Shown here: piece by piece, positions 32,322 to 43,509 of the stretch
Layout of the letters: each line of letters begins with the position of its first letter
How positions within the stretch are numbered: position 1 is the stretch's first letter
Origin: Segatella copri DSM 18205
GTDB taxonomy: Bacteria; Bacteroidota; Bacteroidia; Bacteroidales; Bacteroidaceae
Assembly (NCBI RefSeq): GCF_025151535.1
Contig: NZ_CP102288.1
Coordinates: 873,501-937,500, forward strand
DNA length: 64,000 nt
Reading direction: 5' to 3'
The notes under the pieces: generated by a model
The model's input: only the letters and a program-made list of their open reading frames with translations
The model's database searches: none
What the model was told of the DNA's origin: nothing
Translations under genes and position numbers: made by a program

Positions 32322-32759
32322 CTAGATGTGGAAATCTACCAACTTCAGCCATCGCTTGACATCAAACGACGGACAGTCTTTGTGTACGTTCGGCAAATCG
32401 CGGTGGCCCAGTATCTCTGCATCAGGATAGGATAGGCAGAGGCTCTCCAGAAGCGAATACAGAGCCTGATTCTGGGCTGGAGTGCGCGTATCGGCAGGCT
32501 TGCCGTTCTTGTCGAGACCTCCCTCATAACAGATGCCGATGCTGTGGGCATTGTAATGACGGGCATGGGCTCCTACTTCCGATTCCGGACGACCCGGATA
32601 TACCACACCATCCTTCGTGATGTAATAATGATAGCCGATACTCTTGAAACCGCGGGCAAGATGGCAGGCCTCCAACTGCTCGAATGTGAAATCCTGAGTC
32701 ACTCTCGTGGCAGAACAGTGGATCACGATGAGTGAAATGCTACGATGTTTCTGTGTCAT
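32322..32759 (-). CDS. N-acetylmuramoyl-L-alanine amidase (amidase_2 type)
   Basis: A zinc amidase of about 145 residues that cleaves the bond between N-acetylmuramic acid and the stem peptide of peptidoglycan. Visible ligands: IVIHCSAT (first His), GAHARHYNAHSIGICYEGG, and GHRDLPNVHKDCPSFD (His and Cys near the end). It resembles T7-lysozyme/PGRP-type endolysins and has no signal peptide. ATG at 32759 is chosen; the longer frame would overlap the preceding small gene. It directly follows the 29-residue smalltalk peptide (17 bp), a pairing seen across Bacteroidales near HU-like and primase-helicase genes. Confidence 0.92.
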   Translation of the reverse strand: MTQKHRSISLIVIHCSATRVTQDFTFEQLEACHLARGFKSIGYHYYITKDGVVYPGRPESEVGAHARHYNAHSIGICYEGGLDKNGKPADTRTPAQNQALYSLLESLCLSYPDAEILGHRDLPNVHKDCPSFDVKRWLKLVDFHI

Positions 32760-32775
32760 GGCAACCTCCCTTCTT

Positions 32776-32865
32776 TTAGCAGTTCTGTACACAGAATGAG
32801 CTTGCTACAGCTGTTAATACCGTGATGAGGAAGTTGATGATGGTTTTCCAATTTACTTTTTTCAT
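32776..32865 (-). CDS. Smalltalk-type small membrane peptide, 29 residues
   Basis: A 29-residue gene (MKKVNWKTIINFL, then ITVLTAVASSFCVQNC), too short for usual gene finding. The basic start and one hydrophobic helix (residues about 9-24) make a single-pass membrane peptide with two late cysteines. NCBI calls such peptides 'smalltalk protein' and finds them beside Bacteroidales amidases; the match is from memory of the pattern. It lies 17 bp upstream of the amidase on the same strand. A holin-like or regulatory role is only a hypothesis. Confidence 0.8.
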   Translation of the reverse strand: MKKVNWKTIINFLITVLTAVASSFCVQNC

Positions 32866-33151
32866 TTTGCTTTGTTTTTTAATGATTAATACTAAGTGGA
32901 TAATGATAGTCACATGCTTGTTTTAGTGGTTGAAATTTAGTTTCAGTAAGCGTTTCTGGAAGAAGAAGGGCGGGGGAGGAACTGCCAGCCCGGATACCCG
33001 TAAAAGGCAGGTTCTTGAGTCGTTATGATTTGCTGTTTATCCGTAATCGTCAGGATGAAAACCAGCCGCTTTGTGCCTTCGGAATATCCCTGTCGCCGGT
33101 CAGTTCTCTCCTTCCTTCTTCTGTCGTTTCGCATATTTGAGAGACGGATAA

Positions 33152-33673
33152 CTACTCCAGACCGTCTCCGTTGTCGCCTGTTCCGTCGGTGCTGCCACCT
33201 GGTGATGTGCTGCCGCCCTCAGTGGTTCCGCCGCCCTGTGTGGTATCGCCTGCAGCGCTCTCGCTAGAGTTGAGGAGATCCATGGCGTTCTTGGCGTTGG
33301 CATCGAGAGAGAGCTGTGTGTTGCTGAGCTTGCCGGTAGCACGTGCTCTGAGACGGTAGCCTTCTACAAACTTGGCGAGGCTCCACTCCTTGATGCTGGC
33401 GGCTCCCATCTTGTTGATGATGCCGATGGAGAAGATGGCAAGGTTGTCTATCTTCACAGCCTTGTTCTGGAGCACGAGCTCCTTCACACAGCTCACCATA
33501 TCGGTGAGAAGGCCCTTGATGGCACCCTTCGAGAACGGGGTGTTGTGGCTCGCCATGTGTTCGGCGAGTTCATCGATGCCGACGGTTTCTGTTACTACTG
33601 GTCGCGCATAATACTTGCCATACGCTTCCTTGATAGTCTTGTTCTTGTTCTTCACTAATTTGATGAGAATCAT
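33152..33673 (-). CDS. HU-like DNA-binding protein with Gly/Ser/Thr tail
   Basis: A 173-residue member of the Bacteroidota HU-family DNA-binding proteins (IHF/HU fold) that bend and package DNA. Residues 1-125 hold the fold (KTIKEAYGKYYARPVV, KGAIKGLLTDMVSCVKELVL, VKIDNLAIFSIGI). The last 35 residues are low-complexity (GGTTEGGSTSPGGST) and probably disordered. It has its own promoter (TATCTTTG at 33766-33773, minus strand). Within the cluster it sits between DUF4248 and smalltalk/amidase. Between this gene and smalltalk (32866-33151) no convincing gene is visible. Confidence 0.9.
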   Translation of the reverse strand: MILIKLVKNKNKTIKEAYGKYYARPVVTETVGIDELAEHMASHNTPFSKGAIKGLLTDMVSCVKELVLQNKAVKIDNLAIFSIGIINKMGAASIKEWSLAKFVEGYRLRARATGKLSNTQLSLDANAKNAMDLLNSSESAAGDTTQGGGTTEGGSTSPGGSTDGTGDNGDGLE

Positions 33674-33765
33674 ACTTTTAAAAATTTAGTTTTAGTAAAA
33701 GCAGTCTGTGTCTCCGCCGAGACCGTTGCTGCATCAACCTCTCTGATTGACGATACAAAGATACA

Positions 33766-33773
33766 ACATTCCC
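33766..33773 (-). promoter_or_regulatory. Promoter -7 element of the HU-like gene
   Basis: TATCTTTG on the minus strand, about 95 bp upstream of the start codon. Confidence 0.55.
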
Positions 33774-33845
33774 GAACCCCCAACTATGCGATTTGTGCGA
33801 TTTGCAGGGATTCGGGAAAAAAAGGTTGAAAAAAGTGGTATTTTT

Positions 33846-34058
33846 TTATGGTTCATCTAGAAATTCGATGATTTCTGCTACTTGTTGCCGGGTGTAGAAG
33901 TGGGAAAACTTGCCGGCGTAGCCCGAACAGAGGCTCTGCTTGAGCTCGGGACACCGGTTGATCCATCTCACCAGTCGGTTGAGCGCTACCCTGGGGGTAG
34001 CGGTGGGAAAGTAGAGCATGGCGAGCTCTGCCTTCCCGTAACTTCTGTCTTCTATCAT
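33846..34058 (-). CDS. DUF4248 domain protein, 70 residues
   Basis: A small protein of the DUF4248 family, whose members stand next to VirE-type primase-helicase genes in Bacteroidales. The 70 residues contain YGKAELAMLYFPTATPRVAL and LVRWINRCPELKQSL, then FYTRQQVAEIIEFL. The first and last parts read like a helix-turn-helix, so DNA binding is plausible. Function is not established. It is separated from the primase-helicase gene by palindromic-element copy 2. Confidence 0.85.
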   Translation of the reverse strand: MIEDRSYGKAELAMLYFPTATPRVALNRLVRWINRCPELKQSLCSGYAGKFSHFYTRQQVAEIIEFLDEP

Positions 34059-34085
34059 AATTTGTTCGTTTTTTCTTTCGCATAT

Positions 34086-34226
34086 CAGGAAGTTAAAGGA
34101 GTTAAAGGAGTTATCGCTCCCTACGGTCGCTGAGGAGTTAAGACAATAGTCTTTTTGGCGTAGTTTTTCAAGCAGTAAGACAATGTCTTAACTCCTTAAC
34201 TCCTTAACTCCTTTAACTTCTGAACT
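34086..34226 (+). repeat. Dispersed palindromic element, copy 2
   Basis: GGAGTTAA-type units on the left face TTAACTCC units on the right. The core ATCGCTCCCTACGGTCGC, then ACAATAGTCTTTTTGGCGTAG, is nearly identical to copy 3 (37766-37937). The right flank CTTGCGAAACTTGAAT matches copy 1. Confidence 0.85.
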
Positions 34227-34245
34227 TGCGAAACTTGAATAAAAA

Positions 34246-34308
34246 AATCCCTCCGAAAGATACGGAAATATCTCCGAAAGATAAAAAAATATCTCCGAAG
34301 CAGAATTT
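34246..34308. repeat. Three tandem 21-nt units behind the primase-helicase gene
   Basis: CTCCGAAAGATA starts at 34251 and 34272 and a shortened CTCCGAAG at 34293, an exact 21-nt period. The array touches the stop codon of the primase-helicase gene. Confidence 0.75.
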
Positions 34309-34309
34309 C

Positions 34310-36625
34310 CTAAAATGGGAGATCCTCGGGCGGAATATTCTCGCTGCCATCCATCTTCTGGTTGTTCTCTATCTCGTCAGGACGCATTTCTATCACCTTC
34401 CAGCCGTTGCCCGTCTTGCGGTGAATCTTCTTGAATCCCAGCGCCTCCATGAACATCGAAATATCCTTGTTCGACATCGACTGGCGGAAGGCGGGGTTCG
34501 TGCAGATGCGCTCCATCACATCACTCGCCGTAACAAACTTGCAGAACTCGGACGGCGTATCGGCATCAGGAACACGGTAGAACTTGTTGATGCGCTCGGC
34601 TATGTAATTGTTCACTCGGAAATAAAGATTGTGGCGCTGTATCTCCTCGTTCTCCTCCTTCGTAAACCAGTAAACCCAGTCGCAGGGCTCACCCCTCCGG
34701 CGCTTCTCTATCACCTCCTGAGCCAGTGCCACAGCCTGGGAGTAGATGCCCTCGTAATTGAAGGGGAAGTCGATGGGACTCTTGATCTTCTCGATGCGCC
34801 AGATGAGGAAACGGCGGTTCTCGTCATCATCTATGATATGAACCTCATTGCTCGTGGCACAGAACCCCGCATTGTTCTGCAGAATGCAGTCCCACTCGGC
34901 ATAAGGGATTCGCATGCTGATGTTGCGCTTCGTGATGTTGCTCTTGAAGGAATCCAGGTTCTTACCGCGCAGACAGCTGAACTCATCGAGACATACTATC
35001 GCCTTGCTGGCACACATCTGCAGGAAATCCTTGTTCTTGTAGTCGCCCGTAGAATCGTTGGCGAAATACTTGCGCAGATGGGGCGGCAGAAGATGGTCGA
35101 AAAACGTGGTCTTGAAGATGCCGCCCTTGCCTACGAAAACCATGATAGACTGGTTGGTGACATCGGGCCGAACCCAGCAAACCACCATGTTGACCAGCCA
35201 TTTCTTGAAGGCATAGGCAAAATCCTCCTCCGTATGGCGGTAACCGCCGGTCTGCATCACGGTTACCCGATGGGCCAATTCAGCGATATAGTCAGTCTTC
35301 CGGTCCCATTTCGGCAGACTCTTCAGATATTCCTCCATGGGATTGAATTCGGGACTGAAGTTGCTTCTTATCACCGTATCCAGCTTTTTCTGGGTGGTGC
35401 AGATGTTATCCAGTTCCATCTTCACGAACAAGGAATTGCTCACCCGGGTATCCACTTCGGTCCAGTCGAGATAGAGTTTCTCTCCGGTGTTGATGGCGCG
35501 CACTTCATACTGGTTGCTCAGCGTGTTGTGGTGCATTTCATATCGGGCTCCCAGCCATCCCAGCAGTGCTCTCATGCTGGTATAGCGTTTCTGCTCATCA
35601 TCTCCCTGCTGTCTTATCTTCCAGGTTCCCAGCCGCTCGGTATGCTTGTAAATCTCCCGTGCCACCCGCTCGGTATCGGCATATTCGCCGCCAAACTTAT
35701 CTGCCATGTGTTTCACAGCCTCCTCTTTTTCGGCTCCGAAACAGAGGCAGAATGTGGCGTATCTCACTACGTAGCTGTTGTGATGATGCTCCTCAAACCG
35801 CTCTTCCCATCTCTCTGCCAGTTTGTCTACATACTGCAGAATCTCTTCGGTAGTGAGCGTTTTGGGTGGCGCCTCGTCTTCCTGTTTGCGAGGGCTTTTC
35901 TTTCTGGGTTTTTCAGCCTCCGTCTGCCTTTTCCTGTTCTGTTCCTCCTGTTGCTTTGTGGCTTTTTCGAATTCCTCTACCTCCTCCTGGGTGATGGCGA
36001 AGACCTCGGCATTCCAGTTGAAGTAAGCCTCGGGGTCGTAAGCCAGTCCGCAGCTTCTCACCATGTCCTGGCATTGCTTGTCGCAGCAGATACCCAGCAG
36101 TTTGTCGTACACGCTCATGGCTTTCCTGATGGCGAGCTGGTGGAGCTCGGTGGCAGTGAGATTGCATCCTTCAGGCCGCATATATCTGAGCAGGATGCGG
36201 AATCCCTTGCCCGAGACGGTGATGTAGAAGACCATGGTGAAGGGGATTTTCCGGGCGGTCTGCCTGAGTGCCGCGATATTTTTGGGGGGCACGTCGTCAT
36301 AATCGAGCATCAGCCAGTAGGTTTCCTTCTGGAAGTCAGTCAGCTTTTTGGAGCTTCCCTTGAGCTGCACGCTGGGAGTGATGCAGGGCAGCCGGTGCTT
36401 GATGTCCTCTGCCGTTCTCTTGTCCACCTTTATCATCGACCTGTAGCCTTCGGTATTGGTTTTCACCGGTGCCGAATGCATGATGGTGTACTCCAGCACC
36501 TCTCTGTTGGGGAGAGGCTTGCTGGTAGAGGTCTTCAGAGTCTGGAAAAAAGAGGGCAAGACCTCTTTCTCCTGTTCTGTTTCCGGGTTATTTCCGGTCT
36601 CGTTTGTGGGTTTAATCTCTTTCAT
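34310..36625 (-). CDS. Primase-helicase fusion: BT4734-like N-domain plus VirE/VapE P-loop domain
   Basis: A 771-residue replication-type protein. The N-terminal BT4734/BF3469-like domain (about 45-215) has LDYDD (107-111), resembling the hDhD metal motif of archaeo-eukaryotic primases, and TVSGKGFRILLRY. A charged linker (about 215-250) and a helical domain follow. The C-terminal VirE/VapE domain has Walker A GKGGIFKTTF (499-508), Walker B AIVCLDEF, sensor-like FCATSNE and Arg-finger candidate ENRRFLIW. Related proteins are replication primase-helicases of phages, plasmids and satellites. No integrase or capsid gene is nearby. An 814-codon open frame on the opposite strand is an antisense shadow. 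Confidence 0.9.
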   Translation of the reverse strand: MKEIKPTNETGNNPETEQEKEVLPSFFQTLKTSTSKPLPNREVLEYTIMHSAPVKTNTEGYRSMIKVDKRTAEDIKHRLPCITPSVQLKGSSKKLTDFQKETYWLMLDYDDVPPKNIAALRQTARKIPFTMVFYITVSGKGFRILLRYMRPEGCNLTATELHQLAIRKAMSVYDKLLGICCDKQCQDMVRSCGLAYDPEAYFNWNAEVFAITQEEVEEFEKATKQQEEQNRKRQTEAEKPRKKSPRKQEDEAPPKTLTTEEILQYVDKLAERWEERFEEHHHNSYVVRYATFCLCFGAEKEEAVKHMADKFGGEYADTERVAREIYKHTERLGTWKIRQQGDDEQKRYTSMRALLGWLGARYEMHHNTLSNQYEVRAINTGEKLYLDWTEVDTRVSNSLFVKMELDNICTTQKKLDTVIRSNFSPEFNPMEEYLKSLPKWDRKTDYIAELAHRVTVMQTGGYRHTEEDFAYAFKKWLVNMVVCWVRPDVTNQSIMVFVGKGGIFKTTFFDHLLPPHLRKYFANDSTGDYKNKDFLQMCASKAIVCLDEFSCLRGKNLDSFKSNITKRNISMRIPYAEWDCILQNNAGFCATSNEVHIIDDDENRRFLIWRIEKIKSPIDFPFNYEGIYSQAVALAQEVIEKRRRGEPCDWVYWFTKEENEEIQRHNLYFRVNNYIAERINKFYRVPDADTPSEFCKFVTASDVMERICTNPAFRQSMSNKDISMFMEALGFKKIHRKTGNGWKVIEMRPDEIENNQKMDGSENIPPEDLPF

Positions 36626-36638
36626 TTCTTTTTGGGTT

Positions 36639-37097
36639 TTATGAATCTGTATCTTCTAATAATTCTTTAAGTTTATGAGTAATATACCAGTAGGGAAGGC
36701 TATATCTCCAGTAGCTCCATGCTCTGTTATGTTCCCTCCAGTATACCGAACCTTTGTTCTGTTCCCATATGTACACTTCATCGCAATAATACTGGAATCT
36801 TGTTTTATGATGGACATTTTCTTCATGAACCCAGGTTTTACCTTCGAAGGCATCATCTTCGTCTTTTTCCATGAGAATGGTTTTGATGGCTCTATCAATA
36901 GCGAATATGTACTCTGGTATGAGCGTCATCTTATCTGCCTTCTTATCGATAGTGTCCTGTCCTCCAGCTTCTTTACGAATCATAGTTGGTGATACGCCAC
37001 ATGTTTCTGCGATAGCCAGCTTAAATCTGGCTTCATCTTCAAGTTCTGCCATAAATTTCAGCAAATCTTTTTCTCTTATATTTTTCTTCTTTTTCAT
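36639..37097 (-). CDS. Possible DNA-binding regulator, 152 residues
   Basis: I do not recognise this protein. It starts very basic (MKKKKNIREKDLLKFMAEL). Residues about 30-50 (KLAIAETCGVSPTMIRKEAGG) look like a helix-turn-helix. The C-terminal half is rich in Trp and Tyr (WVHEENVHHKTRFQYYCDE, VYWREHNRAWSYWRYSLPYW). It ends 13 bp before the start of the primase-helicase gene on the same strand, so the two are likely one operon. Its upstream region holds two perfect palindromes, which suits autoregulation. Confidence 0.65.
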   Translation of the reverse strand: MKKKKNIREKDLLKFMAELEDEARFKLAIAETCGVSPTMIRKEAGGQDTIDKKADKMTLIPEYIFAIDRAIKTILMEKDEDDAFEGKTWVHEENVHHKTRFQYYCDEVYIWEQNKGSVYWREHNRAWSYWRYSLPYWYITHKLKELLEDTDS

Positions 37098-37129
37098 GTT
37101 GCGAAGGTATACAAAATGATTTACTTAGG

Positions 37130-37178
37130 CGGCGAGTCCTATAGGACTCGCTTTTTACAAAGAATAACCTAGGTTAAA
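37130..37178. promoter_or_regulatory. Two perfect palindromes upstream of the regulator-like gene
   Basis: GCGAGTCCTATAGGACTCGC (37132-37151) is a perfect 20-bp palindrome and TAACCTAGGTTA (about 37166-37177) a perfect 12-bp one. Both lie between the 152-residue gene and the repeat region. TTTTT follows the first on the plus strand, so a plus-strand terminator is the alternative. Confidence 0.6.
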
Positions 37179-37265
37179 CTTTTTAACATGGTGGCTTTGC
37201 GCCCATTTTTGTTGGGGTATTTTGAAGAAGAAGTAGTGAAGAAGCGAAACATCGGAAAAGTGACG

Positions 37266-37474
37266 AGGTGAAGGGTGAAGGGTATATTTTAAATCTTATA
37301 TTATATTCTTTTTTTAGGATTTTTGGAAAATCCAGAAAGTCAGAAAAATGAAAAAACGGATTTTTTCCCTTGCCGCGCGTATATATAAAAAAGAGTTTTC
37401 AAACCTTCACCCTTCACCTTTTTATTTAACATTTTGTGTGTCAAATAGTTACGGGTGAAGGGTGGTGAAGGGTG
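37266..37474. repeat. Iteron-like GGTGAAGGGT repeats with AT-rich DNA
   Basis: AGGTGAAGGGTGAAGG (37266-37281) is an exact inverted copy of CCTTCACCCTTCACCT (37404-37419), and a third set, GGGTGAAGGGTGGTGAAGGG, is at 37453-37472. The DNA between the first two is very AT-rich. This is a non-coding stretch beside a primase-helicase gene, the layout of a replication origin; that is inference. Confidence 0.6.
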
Positions 37475-37729
37475 TTTTCTGCTTTTTATAAACATATTTT
37501 AAGAATTCAGTGCGTTTTTACATATTTTAAGCGTTTGTTTTTGGTCCCGAAATGGGTGTTTTTTTTTTAGGGTCCATTTTTTCCTCTTTTCTTACCGCTG
37601 AAATCTTTGAAAAAGCGAGTGGGGTAGGAAATTCCGTCTTATGTTGTGTTAAACAATTATCAGATAAAAGAAGTTAACGATACCGAGAAAGGACTGGTTT
37701 TTAAACAAATATTAACGCAGAAAACTTGA
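37475..37729. other. AT-rich non-coding stretch
   Basis: No convincing gene. It contains two copies of ACATATTTTAAG about 29 nt apart, a run of ten T near 37557-37567, and a possible minus-strand hairpin-poor region. It lies between the iteron-like repeats and palindromic-element copy 3. Confidence 0.5.
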
Positions 37730-37765
37730 AGTTTCGCATATTAGATTCAGGTTTCGCAGGTTCAG

Positions 37766-37937
37766 GAGGTAAAGGAGTTAAATCGTTAAATGAGTTAAAG
37801 AAGTTAAATGAGTTAAAGGAGTTATCGCTCCCTACGTTCGCTGAGGAGTTAAGACAACAGTCTTTTTGGCGTAGTTTTTTAAGCTGCAAGACATACGTCT
37901 TAACTCCTTAACTTCCTTAACTCCTTAACTTCCTGAT
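37766..37937 (+). repeat. Dispersed palindromic element, copy 3
   Basis: The longest copy: at least five GAGTTAAA units on the left and four TTAACTCC/TTCC units on the right around the shared core ATCGCTCCCTACGTTCGC and CTTTTTGGCGTAG. It ends with GATATGCGAGGTTCAG, similar to the flank at 40530-40545. Confidence 0.85.
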
Positions 37938-37988
37938 ATGCGAGGTTCAGTAAAGCAAAGGTAATGCGAAGCTTTTGTCGGCGAAAAA

Positions 37989-38875
37989 TCAGAAAGGCAA
38001 ATCCTGAATCCTGTTCTCATCCGTTACCCCGAAGATATCAGCCTCTTCCGGTTCTCCATCCGCAATCACGATATCCCTTATCTTCTTGCGGTAGCTCTTT
38101 ACGATACTCCCGTTCTCCAGTTCCACCCTTCTCCTGATGCTCAGGTCCAGATATTCCTTTTCCCTTTCTATGCCCAGATAGCGCCTGCCGGTCAGCGAGG
38201 CAGCGATGCCGGTAGTTCCGCTTCCCGAGAACGGGTCGAGGATCCATGCTCCGTGCCGGGTTGAAGCCAGGATGATGCGTACCAGCAGGGCGAGCGGTTT
38301 CTGCGTAGGATGCTTGCCCTGCGATTTCTCCCATCTTGCGATGGCTGGCAGCCTCCATACATCCGTCATCTGTTTGTTCTCGTTCAGCAGTTTCATCAGG
38401 TCATAGTTGAAGTAGTGCGGCTTCTTCGGGCACTTTCTTGCCCAGATGATGAACTCGGTGCTGTAGGTAAAGTACCGGCACGAGATATTGGGCGGTGGAT
38501 TGTCTTCGCCCATGTGATGACATTGAGGATTTTGAATCCGAGTTGCGTCAGTTTGTTTGCCACCGAGAAGATATTGTGATAAGTTCCCGAAATCCAGATA
38601 GTTCCGTTCTCCGTCAGGTGTTCCCTGCATTCCGCAATCCATTCCTCGTTGAACAGGTCGATATGTTCGGGCGTCCCTCCCTTATCCCATTCCCCCTTGT
38701 CTACGCACACCACCTTCCCGCTCTATACGCTGATGCCGCCGTTCGACAGGAAGTAAGGAGGATCGGCAAAGATCATGTCGAACTTGAAATCAAATTCGCC
38801 CATCAGCCGGATGCAGTCTCCGTGAAGGAGAGTGAAGTCATCAGCCCTATGATATATCGCCTTTTTATTCATCAT
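37989..38875 (-). pseudogene. Beta-class DNA methyltransferase, inactivated
   Basis: A site-specific adenine-N6/cytosine-N4 DNA methyltransferase broken in two places. From the ATG at 38875, codons 1-50 carry LLHGDCIRLMG and the catalytic FADPPYFLSNGG. Codon 51 (38723-38725) is TAG where CAG would continue V-Q-SGK. The frame then runs through VDKGEWDKGG, NGTIWISGTYHNIF and NVITWAKT, where one missing base near 38500-38503 shifts the rest (NPPPNISCRYFTYSTEF, HPTQKPLALL, DPFSGSGTTGIAA) to another frame. DPPY before FSGSGTT marks the beta class. Restoring the two changes gives a protein of about 295 residues. Divergent from the nuclease-like gene at 39100. Confidence 0.88.
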
Positions 38876-40545: not shown

Positions 40546-40603
40546 AATTATTTTGAAAGTGCAAAAAAGATGAGAAAAGTATGGCGGTTTCGGAAAATAA
40601 TCG

Positions 40604-40611
40604 TAAATTTG
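40604..40611 (+). promoter_or_regulatory. Promoter -7 element of the first AAA-ATPase gene
   Basis: TAAATTTG followed by GCAATTGG, about 27 bp before the chosen ATG. The -33 box is weak. Confidence 0.5.
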
Positions 40612-40637
40612 CAATTGGAAAACAAAGATTAGGAATT

Positions 40638-42212
40638 ATGGTAGAGACTAACGATAGAATATTGCCGGTAGGCATCCAGTCTTTCGAGAAAATCAGAAAG
40701 GAAGGATACCTTTATGTTGACAAGACAGATATCATCTGGCAACTTGCCAACAAAAATAAAACGTACAACTACCTGAGCCGCCCACGCCGCTTTGGTAAAT
40801 CTGTGCTGATCGATACGCTCGAAGCCTACTTCATGGGTAAGAAGGAACTCTTCGAGGGCTTGAAGATCATGCAGCTGGAGACAGAATGGGTGAAGCGTCC
40901 TGTCATCAGACTGGATATGAGTCGTGCAGGCGCAGAACCGGAAACTTTGCGCTCTTATCTCGACAACACTTTCGACAGATTAGAGAAGGAATATGGTATT
41001 CCACCTAATCCAACCGCCAAACTTGCCGACCGCTTCAATGCAATAATCGTGGGGGCGTATGAGCAAACCGGACAGCAGGTTGCCATCCTCATCGATGAAT
41101 ACGATTCTCCATTGCAGCATTCCTGGAAGACTCCTTATCACGAAGCATGTACCGCTGTTTATCGTGAAGTTTTTGCCATTCTCAAGGCAGATGATAAATA
41201 CGAAAAGTTTGTCTTCATCACGGGTATCACCAAGTTTACGCAGCTTTCTCTTTTCTCTGTGCTCAACAATCTGAGCAATATCAGCTTTGAACCTGAATAT
41301 GCTGCCATCTGTGGTATCACGAAGGAAGAAGTCTTACGTGATTTCAAGCCGGAAATCAATAAGTTGGCTGAATACGAAGACTGGACATTCAATGAAGCTG
41401 TTGCGAAGCTTACGGCTTATTATGACGGCTATCACTTCAGTCGCCGCAATATGGTTGATGTCTTCAATCCGTTCAGTCTCATCAATGCCTTGGCAGATTC
41501 TGATTTGAAGAACTATTGGGCTTCTTCGGGTGCAACCTCGCTGCTTCCAAAGTTTGTGGATGACATGGAGATTCGTTTGAAGGATTTTGATCATAGTGCC
41601 CTGTTGGACACAATCATAGAAACTTCTGACGTAACAGGCGGTGGAGCAGAGCTGTTTCTCTATCAGTCGGGCTATCTCACGATTAAGGGTTACATAAACG
41701 GAACTTATCTTCTTGGCATTCCTAACTTCGAGGTTCGGCAAGCCTTGAATGAAATCGTGTTGCCAACGCTTGCCATGCGCAAGAATAATGACCTTCAATC
41801 TACCCAGGCATTTCTGAATGTTCACCTCAGCCTTGGCAATCTTCCCGAAGCCATGAAATGCCTGAAGGCTCTCATAGCTGACGTGCCCTACAGCAACAAG
41901 AAGCTTGCCAGCATGGATATGGAGGAGCGCTACCGACTGATTATGAGCACCATCTTCTATGCTATCGGCTGCCGGGTAGAAGTAGAAAAGATGATTGCTA
42001 CGGGCAGGATTGATATGGTGGTAGAAAACACTAACTTTATCTATGTGCTGGAGTTGAAGCTGAGTAACAATGGTGGTGTGGATGCTGCCACGGAGCAGAT
42101 GAAAGCCAAGCAGTATGCCGAACCTTTCAAGGCTGATAAGCGCAAGGTAATTGCCCTTGCCATAGAACTGGATGATATGGGAAAGGGACTGGTTGATTGG
42201 AAGGAAGTATAA
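40638..42212 (+). CDS. AAA-ATPase with C-terminal PD-(D/E)XK nuclease domain (DUF1703 type)
   Basis: A 524-residue protein of a family common and often multi-copy in Prevotella. It has the N-terminal motif LPVGIQSFEKIRKEGYLYVD, Walker [11 protein letters not shown], Walker [29 protein letters not shown], then FDGYHF-like YYDGYHFSR, and the C-terminal nuclease-like block RIDMVVENTNFIYVLELKLS (PD-(D/E)XK: D, then E-x-K). The ATG at 40638 follows the -7 box TAAATTTG (40604-40611); the earlier in-frame codon at 40581 lies upstream of that promoter. Function is unknown; a link with mobile elements or defence is proposed for related proteins. Confidence 0.88.
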   Translation: MVETNDRILPVGIQSFEKIRKEGYLYVDKTDIIWQLANKNKTYNYLSRPRRFGKSVLIDTLEAYFMGKKELFEGLKIMQLETEWVKRPVIRLDMSRAGAEPETLRSYLDNTFDRLEKEYGIPPNPTAKLADRFNAIIVGAYEQTGQQVAILIDEYDSPLQHSWKTPYHEACTAVYREVFAILKADDKYEKFVFITGITKFTQLSLFSVLNNLSNISFEPEYAAICGITKEEVLRDFKPEINKLAEYEDWTFNEAVAKLTAYYDGYHFSRRNMVDVFNPFSLINALADSDLKNYWASSGATSLLPKFVDDMEIRLKDFDHSALLDTIIETSDVTGGGAELFLYQSGYLTIKGYINGTYLLGIPNFEVRQALNEIVLPTLAMRKNNDLQSTQAFLNVHLSLGNLPEAMKCLKALIADVPYSNKKLASMDMEERYRLIMSTIFYAIGCRVEVEKMIATGRIDMVVENTNFIYVLELKLSNNGGVDAATEQMKAKQYAEPFKADKRKVIALAIELDDMGKGLVDWKEV

Positions 42213-42311
42213 TATTGCAAAAGATAATTGTGAAAAATATCTCTCCCAAAATTTTCCTATTCAAAAAAATATTCGTAACTTAGCAGCGCAAAACGTAAAG
42301 CATGTAGGAAT

Positions 42312-43509
42312 ATGGCAAAAATGGTAAATTTCTATCCTGTAGGAATACAGACATTCTCGAATATCAGAGAGGGTAATTATCTCTATATAGATAAGACCCA
42401 ATACATCGTGGATTTTCGAGAGAAAAAAATGAAGTATGTCTTTCTGAGTCGTCCAAGACGATTCGGAAAGTCGCTCTTTGCATCTACCCTCCAGGCCTAT
42501 TTCGAGGGAAGGAAAGAACTTTTTGAGGGATTGGCCATTGCTGATTATGAGAAGGATTGGGTGAAGCACCCTGTGCTGCATTTCGACCTGAGCGGCGCCA
42601 AGCACATGGGAGTGGAGCAGCTGGAAAGATACCTGGCTGATATGCTTGAAGAGCAGGAGACAATTTGGGGATATAAGACGCATCAGGTGGACGCTAACCT
42701 CCATTTGAAAGACCTGGTGAAAGAAGCATACAAGCAGACGGGTAAGAAGGTAGTGATTATCATTGATGAATATGATGCCCCTTTGCTGGATGTAGTGCAT
42801 GAAAAGGAAAATTTGAAACCGCTGCGCCTCATCATGCAGAACTTCTATAGTCCCATCAAGATGCTCGACCCATACTTGGAGTTTACCTTCATCACGGGTA
42901 TCACCAAGTTCTCGCAGCTCAGCATCTTCAGCGAACTGAATAACCTCGATAACATCAGTATGTTCGACCAGTATTCGGCTATCTGCGGTATCAGCAAGAA
43001 GGAACTTACCACTCAGATGAAACCGGATATTGAGGCATTGGGAGAAGACCTGGGTATGACGTATGAGGAGTGCCTGGCAGAGCTGACAAGATTCTACGAC
43101 GGCTATCATTTCAGTAAGAAATCTGAAGATGTATTCAATCCGTTCAGTCTGGTAAAGGCACTGAATGCACAAAAGATTGCTCCTTACTGGTTTTCCGATT
43201 TATACATCCATAAAACAGTAAATGAGTACCTTTGTAATTTTGATGTTGCTAAGAATTATAATATTGGGGATTTGCCTGAAATTCCTTTTGGGGAGTCAGA
43301 CATAATTCCTTTCCTTTATCAATTTGGAATTCTCTCAATAAAAAAATATAACCCTATTATTGGAGTATATACTATAGGTGTACCTAATGATGATATTCGA
43401 AAAGGGATATCTGATTCCATATTCTGCCGATGGTAAGCGCCTGTTTAAGATTGGCGTAAATTATGACAGCAACCAGCGGACGATAGGTGATTGGATTATC
43501 AAGGAATAG
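42312..43509 (+). pseudogene. AAA-ATPase/PD-(D/E)XK paralogue, mosaic and internally deleted
   Basis: A second copy of the same family. The reading frame (374 codons to 43436) has [33 protein letters not shown] (Walker A), [12 protein letters not shown] (Walker B), [12 protein letters not shown] and [10 protein letters not shown]. It then stops soon after [10 protein letters not shown]. In the next frame the extreme C-terminus of the family follows at once ([19 protein letters not shown], ending WIIKE at 43509). So most of the nuclease domain is deleted with a frameshift near 43400. From about 43195 to 43405 base composition is much more AT-rich than before, which suggests recombination with a foreign paralogue. 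The ATPase half could still be expressed. Confidence 0.8.

What the first reader, a model, noticed from the sequence alone, without database searches (positions are those of the whole stretch)
32322..37474. Primase-helicase / HU / DUF4248 / smalltalk / amidase cluster with origin-like DNA: a domesticated replicon or satellite?
Six same-strand genes combine a primase-helicase fusion, a DNA-bending protein, a small DUF4248 protein, a possible regulator, a 29-residue membrane peptide and an amidase. Behind them lie 0.9 kb of non-coding DNA with iteron-like repeats. Replication, packaging and lysis-like functions without capsid or integrase genes suggest a phage-satellite remnant or a chromosomally fixed element. 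The gene set is known to recur in Bacteroidales; its purpose is not known to me. The replicon reading is inference.
Basis: partly seen in the sequence, partly recalled or inferred. Interest (0 to 1): 0.75.

Follow-up and report, generated by a model that had tools for sequence, protein, structure and literature searches.

The report
Primase, HU and amidase cassette
A six-gene chromosomal cassette pairs a phage-satellite-like DNA-replication enzyme with a DNA-bending protein, a tiny membrane peptide and a cell-wall-cutting enzyme; relatives of it recur in Bacteroidales, often beside or inside surface-sugar gene clusters and facing the opposite way, and what it does is still unproven.

Summary

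The 'origin-like' DNA is mostly copies of two dispersed repeat families, so an origin there is unsupported. The six genes include no capsid, packaging or integrase gene; the cassette was not found beside the same neighbour gene in relatives checked.

New result: relatives are eight- to tenfold enriched beside surface-polysaccharide genes and run antiparallel to them (82 of 84 marker genes; 53 of 56 in a second sample). The window's own copy is not at such a locus. Most dN/dS values are low.

Best reading: a capsid-less replicative element, or its domesticated descendant, with an endolysin-like arm. Local replication and lysis are inferred.

The parts
32322..32792 (-). Peptidoglycan amidase (Amidase_2), endolysin-like, no signal peptide seen; the start is probably the ATG at 32759
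   Evidence: Pfam 73.4 bits (cut-off 26); phrog_822 8.2e-58; H25/H130/C140 conserved in 4 aligned, (zinc role recalled)
32776..32865 (-). smalltalk, 29-aa membrane peptide: basic N-terminus, hydrophobic stretch, C-terminal Cys
   Evidence: NF033879 28.2 bits (cut-off 24.7); family pattern
33152..33673 (-). HU-HIG DNA-binding protein, 173 aa, glycine-rich tail
   Evidence: PF18291 37.5 bits (cut-off 26.2)
33846..34058 (-). DUF4248 small protein, HTH-like
   Evidence: PF14053 81.3 bits (cut-off 27); profile match to a small HTH family
34076..34233 (.). Copy of a genome-wide dispersed repeat (not part of the cassette proper)
34310..36625 (-). Primase-helicase: BT4734-type PrimPol domain (residues 75-202) plus SF3/VapE helicase (about 345-747)
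36639..37097 (-). 152-aa protein of unknown family, all-helical low-confidence model; 60 relatives found, no Pfam domain of its own
37260..37593 (.). 'Iteron-like' region: copy of a dispersed repeat (homology to 657k continues to 37840)
37799..37954 (.). Second copy of the repeat at 34.08 kb

Best explanation
The cassette is one copy of a persistent, multi-copy chromosomal element family of Bacteroidales that lacks capsid and integrase genes of its own. Its first arm is a replication initiator/primase-helicase that, like the self-loading helicases of phage satellites, would open and prime DNA locally; DUF4248 and the 152-aa protein would control or assist it, and HU-HIG would shape the DNA. 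Its second arm, smalltalk plus a cytosolic peptidoglycan hydrolase, would work like a small-membrane-peptide/endolysin pair and open the cell wall when the cassette is fully expressed. Together this would amplify and release nearby DNA in a few cells. Shown: gene content, slot-wise replacement, low dN/dS in most pairs, placement and orientation. Inferred: local replication, lysis, DNA release and trigger.
Against: No origin, excision site or circular form was found; the window's upstream repeats are dispersed and most cassettes lack them. No lysis or replication data exist here. Read-through avoidance is not general: outside polysaccharide loci downstream genes show no strand bias (72 to 62) and upstream genes lean parallel to the cassette (32 to 15). 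Eight of 27 dN/dS values fall outside 0.03-0.15 (two are 0; six are 0.17-0.45, in L100/L132 and the near-identical L132/L135), and many dS values exceed 1. The window genome's own cassettes have no polysaccharide markers in the 19-26 kb read around them. A cytosolic amidase could also serve wall recycling (weak AmpD hit, 21.3 bits against cut-off 143).
Confidence: 0.38

Rival explanations
1. Passenger element: a plasmid- or phage-derived replication/lysis remnant that collects in variable islands, polysaccharide loci among them, with no role for the host.
For: Patchy within the genus: no primase match above 36% identity in 23 same-genus genomes, 10 of them under 90% complete. Window copy lies among repeats and accessory-looking genes. 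A DUF4248/HU/primase unit occurs twice in the genome (L008/L009, 87-98% identical over about 4.7 kb). Flanks of relatives hold some defence-type genes, as islands do. One relative, L073, has an integrase about 3.6 kb beyond the amidase.
Against: Low dN/dS in most comparisons; the same five slots recur in loci labelled Segatella, Prevotella, Bacteroides, Phocaeicola and Mediterranea; the primase itself is common in metagenome proteins (98% cluster with 16,101 members, others at 94% and 58-61%).
Confidence: 0.23
2. Anti-phage or abortive-infection system: the replication enzyme senses or feeds on invading replication and the wall enzyme kills the cell.
For: Primase domain matches PADLOC PrimPol and DRT-associated profiles. 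Flanking proteins include defence-type matches: among the 25 families shown, GajB, type I methyltransferase, RTasHel and SoFic in 1-2 of 118 downstream proteins, PtuA, AriA and others in 2 of 101 upstream (no control run). Patchy presence; toxic-looking arm.
Against: The other four of five cassette proteins scanned have no PADLOC hit; defence-type neighbours are few and may only mark variable islands.
Confidence: 0.18
3. Regulator of surface-polysaccharide loci: HU-HIG and antisense or replication-transcription conflict tune the operon it sits in.
For: Eight- to tenfold enrichment and antiparallel placement. In Porphyromonas gingivalis an HU gene (PG0121) flanking the capsule operon is needed for normal expression (abstract of PMC3969353), and an antisense RNA acts at that locus (abstract of PMC8757827).
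Against: 47 of 72 amidase-selected loci have fewer than two such markers, and no own-genome cassette has any. [quoted passage not shown] coli HU, unlike this HU-HIG on the opposite strand. Regulation does not need a primase-helicase or a wall enzyme.
Confidence: 0.15

Closest known systems
Replication proteins of staphylococcal phage satellites and like elements (PriRep1; SaPI5 primase-helicase)
   Same: Same SF3-type helicase fold; primase-type domain plus helicase in one protein
   Different: No integrase, packaging or capsid-remodelling gene among the six; no iteron origin shown; has HU-HIG, smalltalk and a wall hydrolase; several chromosomal copies
Phage lysis cassette (small membrane protein plus endolysin; the T7 gp3.5-gp4 neighbourhood is recalled)
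   Same: Signal-less amidase of phrog_822 type directly after a tiny membrane-peptide gene
   Different: Most cassette amidases form their own clade apart from 66 viral ones; no virion genes; smalltalk not found in the 80 viral loci
Colicin lysis lipoproteins (recalled)
   Same: Very short peptide ending in a lipobox-like [VIML][QTS][SA]C
   Different: Almost nothing follows the Cys; no bacteriocin gene seen; lipidation untested
BT4734/BF3469 locus of Bacteroides
   Same: Same primase family with DUF4248, HU and amidase; beside pflBA in B. finegoldii; an amidase is listed with pflA/pflB at BT4735-38 (passage in PMC10434189)
   Different: DUF4248 on the other strand; different site; primase 27-28% identical

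Membership tests
BT4734-type archaeo-eukaryotic primase | PF08800 domain with motif I acidic residues | tested here: met
   96.1 bits, cut-off 22.4; D110 invariant, D108 nearly so in 30 sequences
BT4734-type archaeo-eukaryotic primase | AEP fold of the N-domain by structure | tested here: inconclusive
   Of the rows shown, those reaching far into the N-half are full-length viral PrimPol at rmsd 17.6 or more; N-domain not folded alone
SF3 / VapE-type helicase | P-loop, acidic Walker B, arginine pair, hexameric-helicase fold | tested here: met
Phage satellite (SaPI/PICI) | Integrase in the element | tested here: not met
   None among the six genes
Phage satellite (SaPI/PICI) | Packaging or capsid-remodelling gene | tested here: not met
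   No such PHROG or Pfam hit in the six genes
Phage satellite (SaPI/PICI) | Replication origin beside the initiator gene | tested here: inconclusive
   Repeats exist but are dispersed
Phage satellite (SaPI/PICI) | Helper-phage induction | not testable with these tools
   Needs culture
Prophage | Virion structural genes | tested here: not met
   None among the six genes
Plasmid | Autonomous circular form | not testable with these tools
   No read data; the 10 plasmid records with a DUF4248 match are labelled non-mobilizable
smalltalk (NF033879) | Score above the curated cut-off | tested here: met
   28.2 against 24.7 bits
HU_rel (TIGR01201) | Score above the curated cut-off | tested here: not met
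   47.3 against 68.6 bits; filed as HU-HIG instead
AmpD recycling amidase | NF008758 above its cut-off | tested here: not met
   21.3 against 143 bits
Holin or lysis lipoprotein | Membrane permeabilisation | not testable with these tools
   Only sequence pattern and position

The most novel reading that the evidence does not exclude
A capsid-free 'replicate and release' system: cassettes seated antiparallel in surface-polysaccharide operons over-replicate that DNA and, through a micro-lipopeptide and a wall hydrolase, free it from a few lysing cells, so helping Bacteroidales exchange capsule genes.
Probability: 0.12. Interest if true: 0.92.

Novelty: new variant of a known kind. Interest (0 to 1): 0.62.

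Why it matters
Surface-polysaccharide loci of gut Bacteroidales vary greatly (recalled), and how they are exchanged is open. A conserved replication-plus-wall-hydrolase cassette that sits in them on the opposite strand gives a concrete, testable candidate for moving, amplifying or regulating them. It also gives roles to test for DUF4248, HU-HIG and smalltalk, for which I saw no assigned mechanism in the papers found.

Tried and rejected
Origin reading: rejected as a general feature. Motif counts over about 1.3 kb upstream of the primase-type gene in 57 loci gave 5 or more GGTGAA/TTCACC only in the window (6), L011 (10) and L106 (5). In the 18 DUF6371-class loci that stretch mostly covers a coding gene, so the fair test is the other 39. 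One locus, L138, does have a strong repeat there (an 8-mer 12 times, shuffles at most 5), and a few others reach P about 0.02-0.05 by 60 shuffles, so single cassettes may have repeats of their own. A GTGAAnnGTGAA motif lies near 3 of 28 VapE/primase loci.

Phage-module reading: of 80 viral amidase loci, 60 show the amidase alone; a Toprim/DnaB-type hit occurs in 17, HU in 7 and DUF4248 in 5 (records of 13.6-41.9 kb for the HU ones); no PrimPol, DUF6371-class or smalltalk hit. Primase scans of the viral and genome collections found nothing, which says little because their patterns were poor.

My own mislabel: I called one class 'CHC2' after its seed (L008/L009). Pfam shows DUF6371 in the 3 members scanned. 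A direct profile comparison failed; only one sequence, L079, bridges the two, so they are not shown to be homologous.

The 152-aa protein: structure poor (pLDDT 61.6), fold matches not significant. Rfam: no match. Sequence search of solved structures with the primase: one chance-level hit. Families absent from VIA-align rows are not excluded.

Rows dropped: three near-duplicate loci (L107, L127, L135) before the flank counts; 26 of 80 loci with under 4.5 kb upstream before the slot counts; flank pieces under 3 kb before the density count; for the downstream Pfam and PADLOC tallies 118 of 179 flank proteins were given, at most two a locus and long ones left out. In the second sample 36 of 57 DUF4248 matches of the ten genomes were used, those shown in a capped list; three of the 36 had no HU or amidase to set a strand.

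Full report
OBSERVATION. The window is C1:873501-937500 of a 3.33-Mb single-contig genome. Six minus-strand genes fill 32322-37097. Families: Amidase_2, HU-HIG, DUF4248, BT4734_N plus VapE, smalltalk; the 152-aa upstream gene has none. The genome holds seven DUF4248 matches, one with a stop inside, eight BT4734_N and 22 HU-HIG-type matches, 20 over the cut-off. Three sets combine the BT4734 primase with DUF4248: the window, L011 (amidase 77%, HU 59%, primase 41% identical) and a broken-up one, L010. L008/L009 pair a CHC2 primase gene with DUF4248 and HU-HIG; L012 pairs a Rep3 initiator gene with DUF4248, with HU, smalltalk and amidase nearby.

NON-CODING DNA. The 34 kb and 37.8 kb repeats are 94% alike over 94 nt; their core has 32 genome hits at up to 2 mismatches, control 0. 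The GTGAAGGGTGAANGGT pattern has 43 hits at up to 2 mismatches against 11 for the reversed control, four of them exact. Window 37260-37840 is 91% identical to C1:657k; no cassette profile matches in the stretches fetched around the copies. So most of the origin-like DNA belongs to dispersed repeats. L011 also has GGTGAA/TTCACC motifs upstream (10), L106 five, the window six; the other 54 of 57 regions have four or fewer. L138 has a strong repeat of its own there.

THE CASSETTE FAMILY. Since loci were chosen by amidase alone, the other genes are an independent result. Of 54 loci with at least 4.5 kb upstream: HU-HIG 52, smalltalk-like 50, DUF4248 31, primase-type 46 (28 PrimPol-VapE, 16 of the class I first called CHC2, 2 Toprim-DnaB type), 8 without a recognised primase. 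In 19 more loci the DUF4248 slot holds a small HTH protein; its profile aligns with DUF4248 (hhalign probability 92, pairwise E 5e-7), giving 50 of 54. The 16-locus class is DUF6371 in 3 of 3 scanned, with an AAA_25 gene upstream in 3 of 3 scanned (weak replicative-helicase PHROG hits). A Parabacteroides locus has a glucosaminidase where the amidase would be. DUF4248 occurs in 108 of 199 genomes of the family, with up to nine matches each, and in 17 of 198 of the order.

NOT FIXED, NOT JUST DECAY. In 40 relatives (23 of the same genus, 10 of these under 90% complete) the primase has no match above 36% identity in the genus. Close relatives do exist in the protein database: 98% (16,101 members), 94%, and several at 58-61%. 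The left neighbour (YitT) was found in 33 of 60 same-genus genomes; of 29 non-self loci read, none has cassette genes within 1.5 kb, 3 being cut short. The one that is 90% identical, L236, has other neighbours; the rest are 49-70% identical and may be paralogues. Yet some Bacteroides cassettes share flanking DNA across species. dN/dS is 0.03-0.15 in 19 of 27 usable comparisons; L100/L132 gave 0.17-0.45 and the near-identical L132/L135 0, 0, 0.28 and 0.45; four comparisons were saturated and many dS exceed 1. Pairwise distances of amidase, HU, smalltalk, DUF4248 and PrimPol correlate (Mantel r 0.43-0.77), less with the DUF6371 class (0.16-0.26), so that module may be exchanged more often. The tree of 148 amidases, rooted at the midpoint, has a clade of 76 of 82 cassette-set sequences without viral ones (support 0.90).

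SMALLTALK AND AMIDASE. In 73 smalltalk-like frames, Cys is kept in 70 and the residue before it is Ser or Ala in 70; 64 of 73 are 30-37 aa by my choice of start. I read this as a lipoprotein-signal-like peptide with almost nothing behind the Cys; lipidation is inference. At least one frame (L084) looks spurious. The amidase begins at its domain, as in endolysins (49 of 70 by ORF length, 21 by eye).

POLYSACCHARIDE LINK. The top Pfam families in both flanks are mostly sugar-nucleotide and glycosyltransferase families (118 downstream proteins; 101 upstream). Counted with 27 marker proteins (23 from E. coli K-12, 4 from L073): 80 marker ORFs in 859.8 kb of flank (106 pieces) against 7 in 720 kb of control (40 arbitrary regions of six genomes); 25 of 72 loci have two or more; resampled controls gave mean 7.8, sd 3.4, maximum 23. 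The result does not rest on the L073 queries: 76 of 84 markers are also hit by an E. coli query, as are 5 of the 7 control ones. Orientation: 82 of 84 markers lie on the strand opposite to the cassette; by locus 28 of 29; the 25 loci with two or more fall into 13 amidase clusters at 75% identity. In these 25 loci the first three downstream genes are 66 opposite to 6 parallel and the first three upstream 39 to 16; in the rest 72 to 62 downstream and 15 to 32 upstream (arbitrary neighbours are co-directional in 296 of 425). Nine loci have markers on both sides, so there the cassette lies inside the cluster. A second sample chosen by DUF4248 (36 of 57 matches in ten genomes; species may overlap with the first set) gave 56 markers in 716 kb against 8 in 800 kb of control from the same ten genomes, 7 of the 8 in one region; with E. 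coli queries alone 46 against 3. There 53 are antiparallel and 3 parallel; loci 20 to 1; HU in 33, amidase in 27, primase-type in 23, smalltalk in 16 of 36. Against: no own-genome cassette has a marker in the 19-26 kb read around it; controls were arbitrary regions, not variable islands. Defence-type genes also occur in the flanks (1-2 members for each family shown, of 118 and 101), and L073 has an integrase about 3.6 kb beyond its amidase. A hotspot effect is therefore not excluded.

LITERATURE. Searches for DUF4248 (3 papers), HU-HIG (60 papers, the 10 listed irrelevant), BT4734/smalltalk/BF3469 (3 papers), and combinations with polysaccharide loci, VapE or amidase showed no description of this cassette or its placement in the listings seen; the library lacks most subscription papers, among them the HU-superfamily paper that I recalled. 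A DUF4248 gene of P. gingivalis was deleted, with hyperpigmentation and more oxidative-stress tolerance (title and passages of PMC6231650); it stands between queG and a lyase gene, so it may be a stand-alone relative.

MECHANISM. See Best explanation. Steps shown: content, slot replacement, mostly low dN/dS, placement. Steps inferred: replication from the cassette, wall opening, DNA release, trigger. Antiparallel placement may be selected because operon read-through would switch on a harmful cassette; the parallel upstream neighbours at other loci speak against a general rule of that kind.

Noticed in passing
L314 2358-3906 (genome C1:2732.4-2733.9k): A single VapE-like gene stands between two inverted copies of a GTGAAGAG-type palindromic repeat, like a one-gene element; similar palindromes without a gene lie elsewhere in the genome.
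   Followed up: partly
L008 6375-11099 and L009 5629-10586: A unit of about 4.7 kb (CHC2 primase gene, DUF4248, short protein with an SSSC-type membrane stretch, HU-HIG) is present twice, 87-98% identical, with sharp homology borders; no transposase was seen inside.
   Followed up: partly
L138, 1.3 kb upstream of its PrimPol gene: An 8-mer (AATGAAGA) occurs 12 times, far above shuffles: a possible iteron set of that one cassette.
   Followed up: no
window 37989-38713: An N6/N4 DNA methyltransferase gene appears split over two frames (37989-38642 and 38396-38713).
   Followed up: no
window 40581-43436: Two neighbouring genes with similar starts, resembling the predicted AAA-ATPase/PD-(D/E)XK family; a gene of that family interrupts cassette L073. 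Family not tested for the window genes.
   Followed up: no
window 34226-36670, + strand: An 814-codon open frame runs antisense to the primase gene; probably a by-product of codon usage.
   Followed up: no
P0001-P0060 (relatives of window 36639-37097): The 152-aa protein family keeps its C-terminal half while the N-terminal half comes in two diverged versions, as if domains were exchanged.
   Followed up: no
L011 7000-13400: Several copies of a CACAGATT-rich repeat surround the second cassette of this genome (by eye).
   Followed up: no
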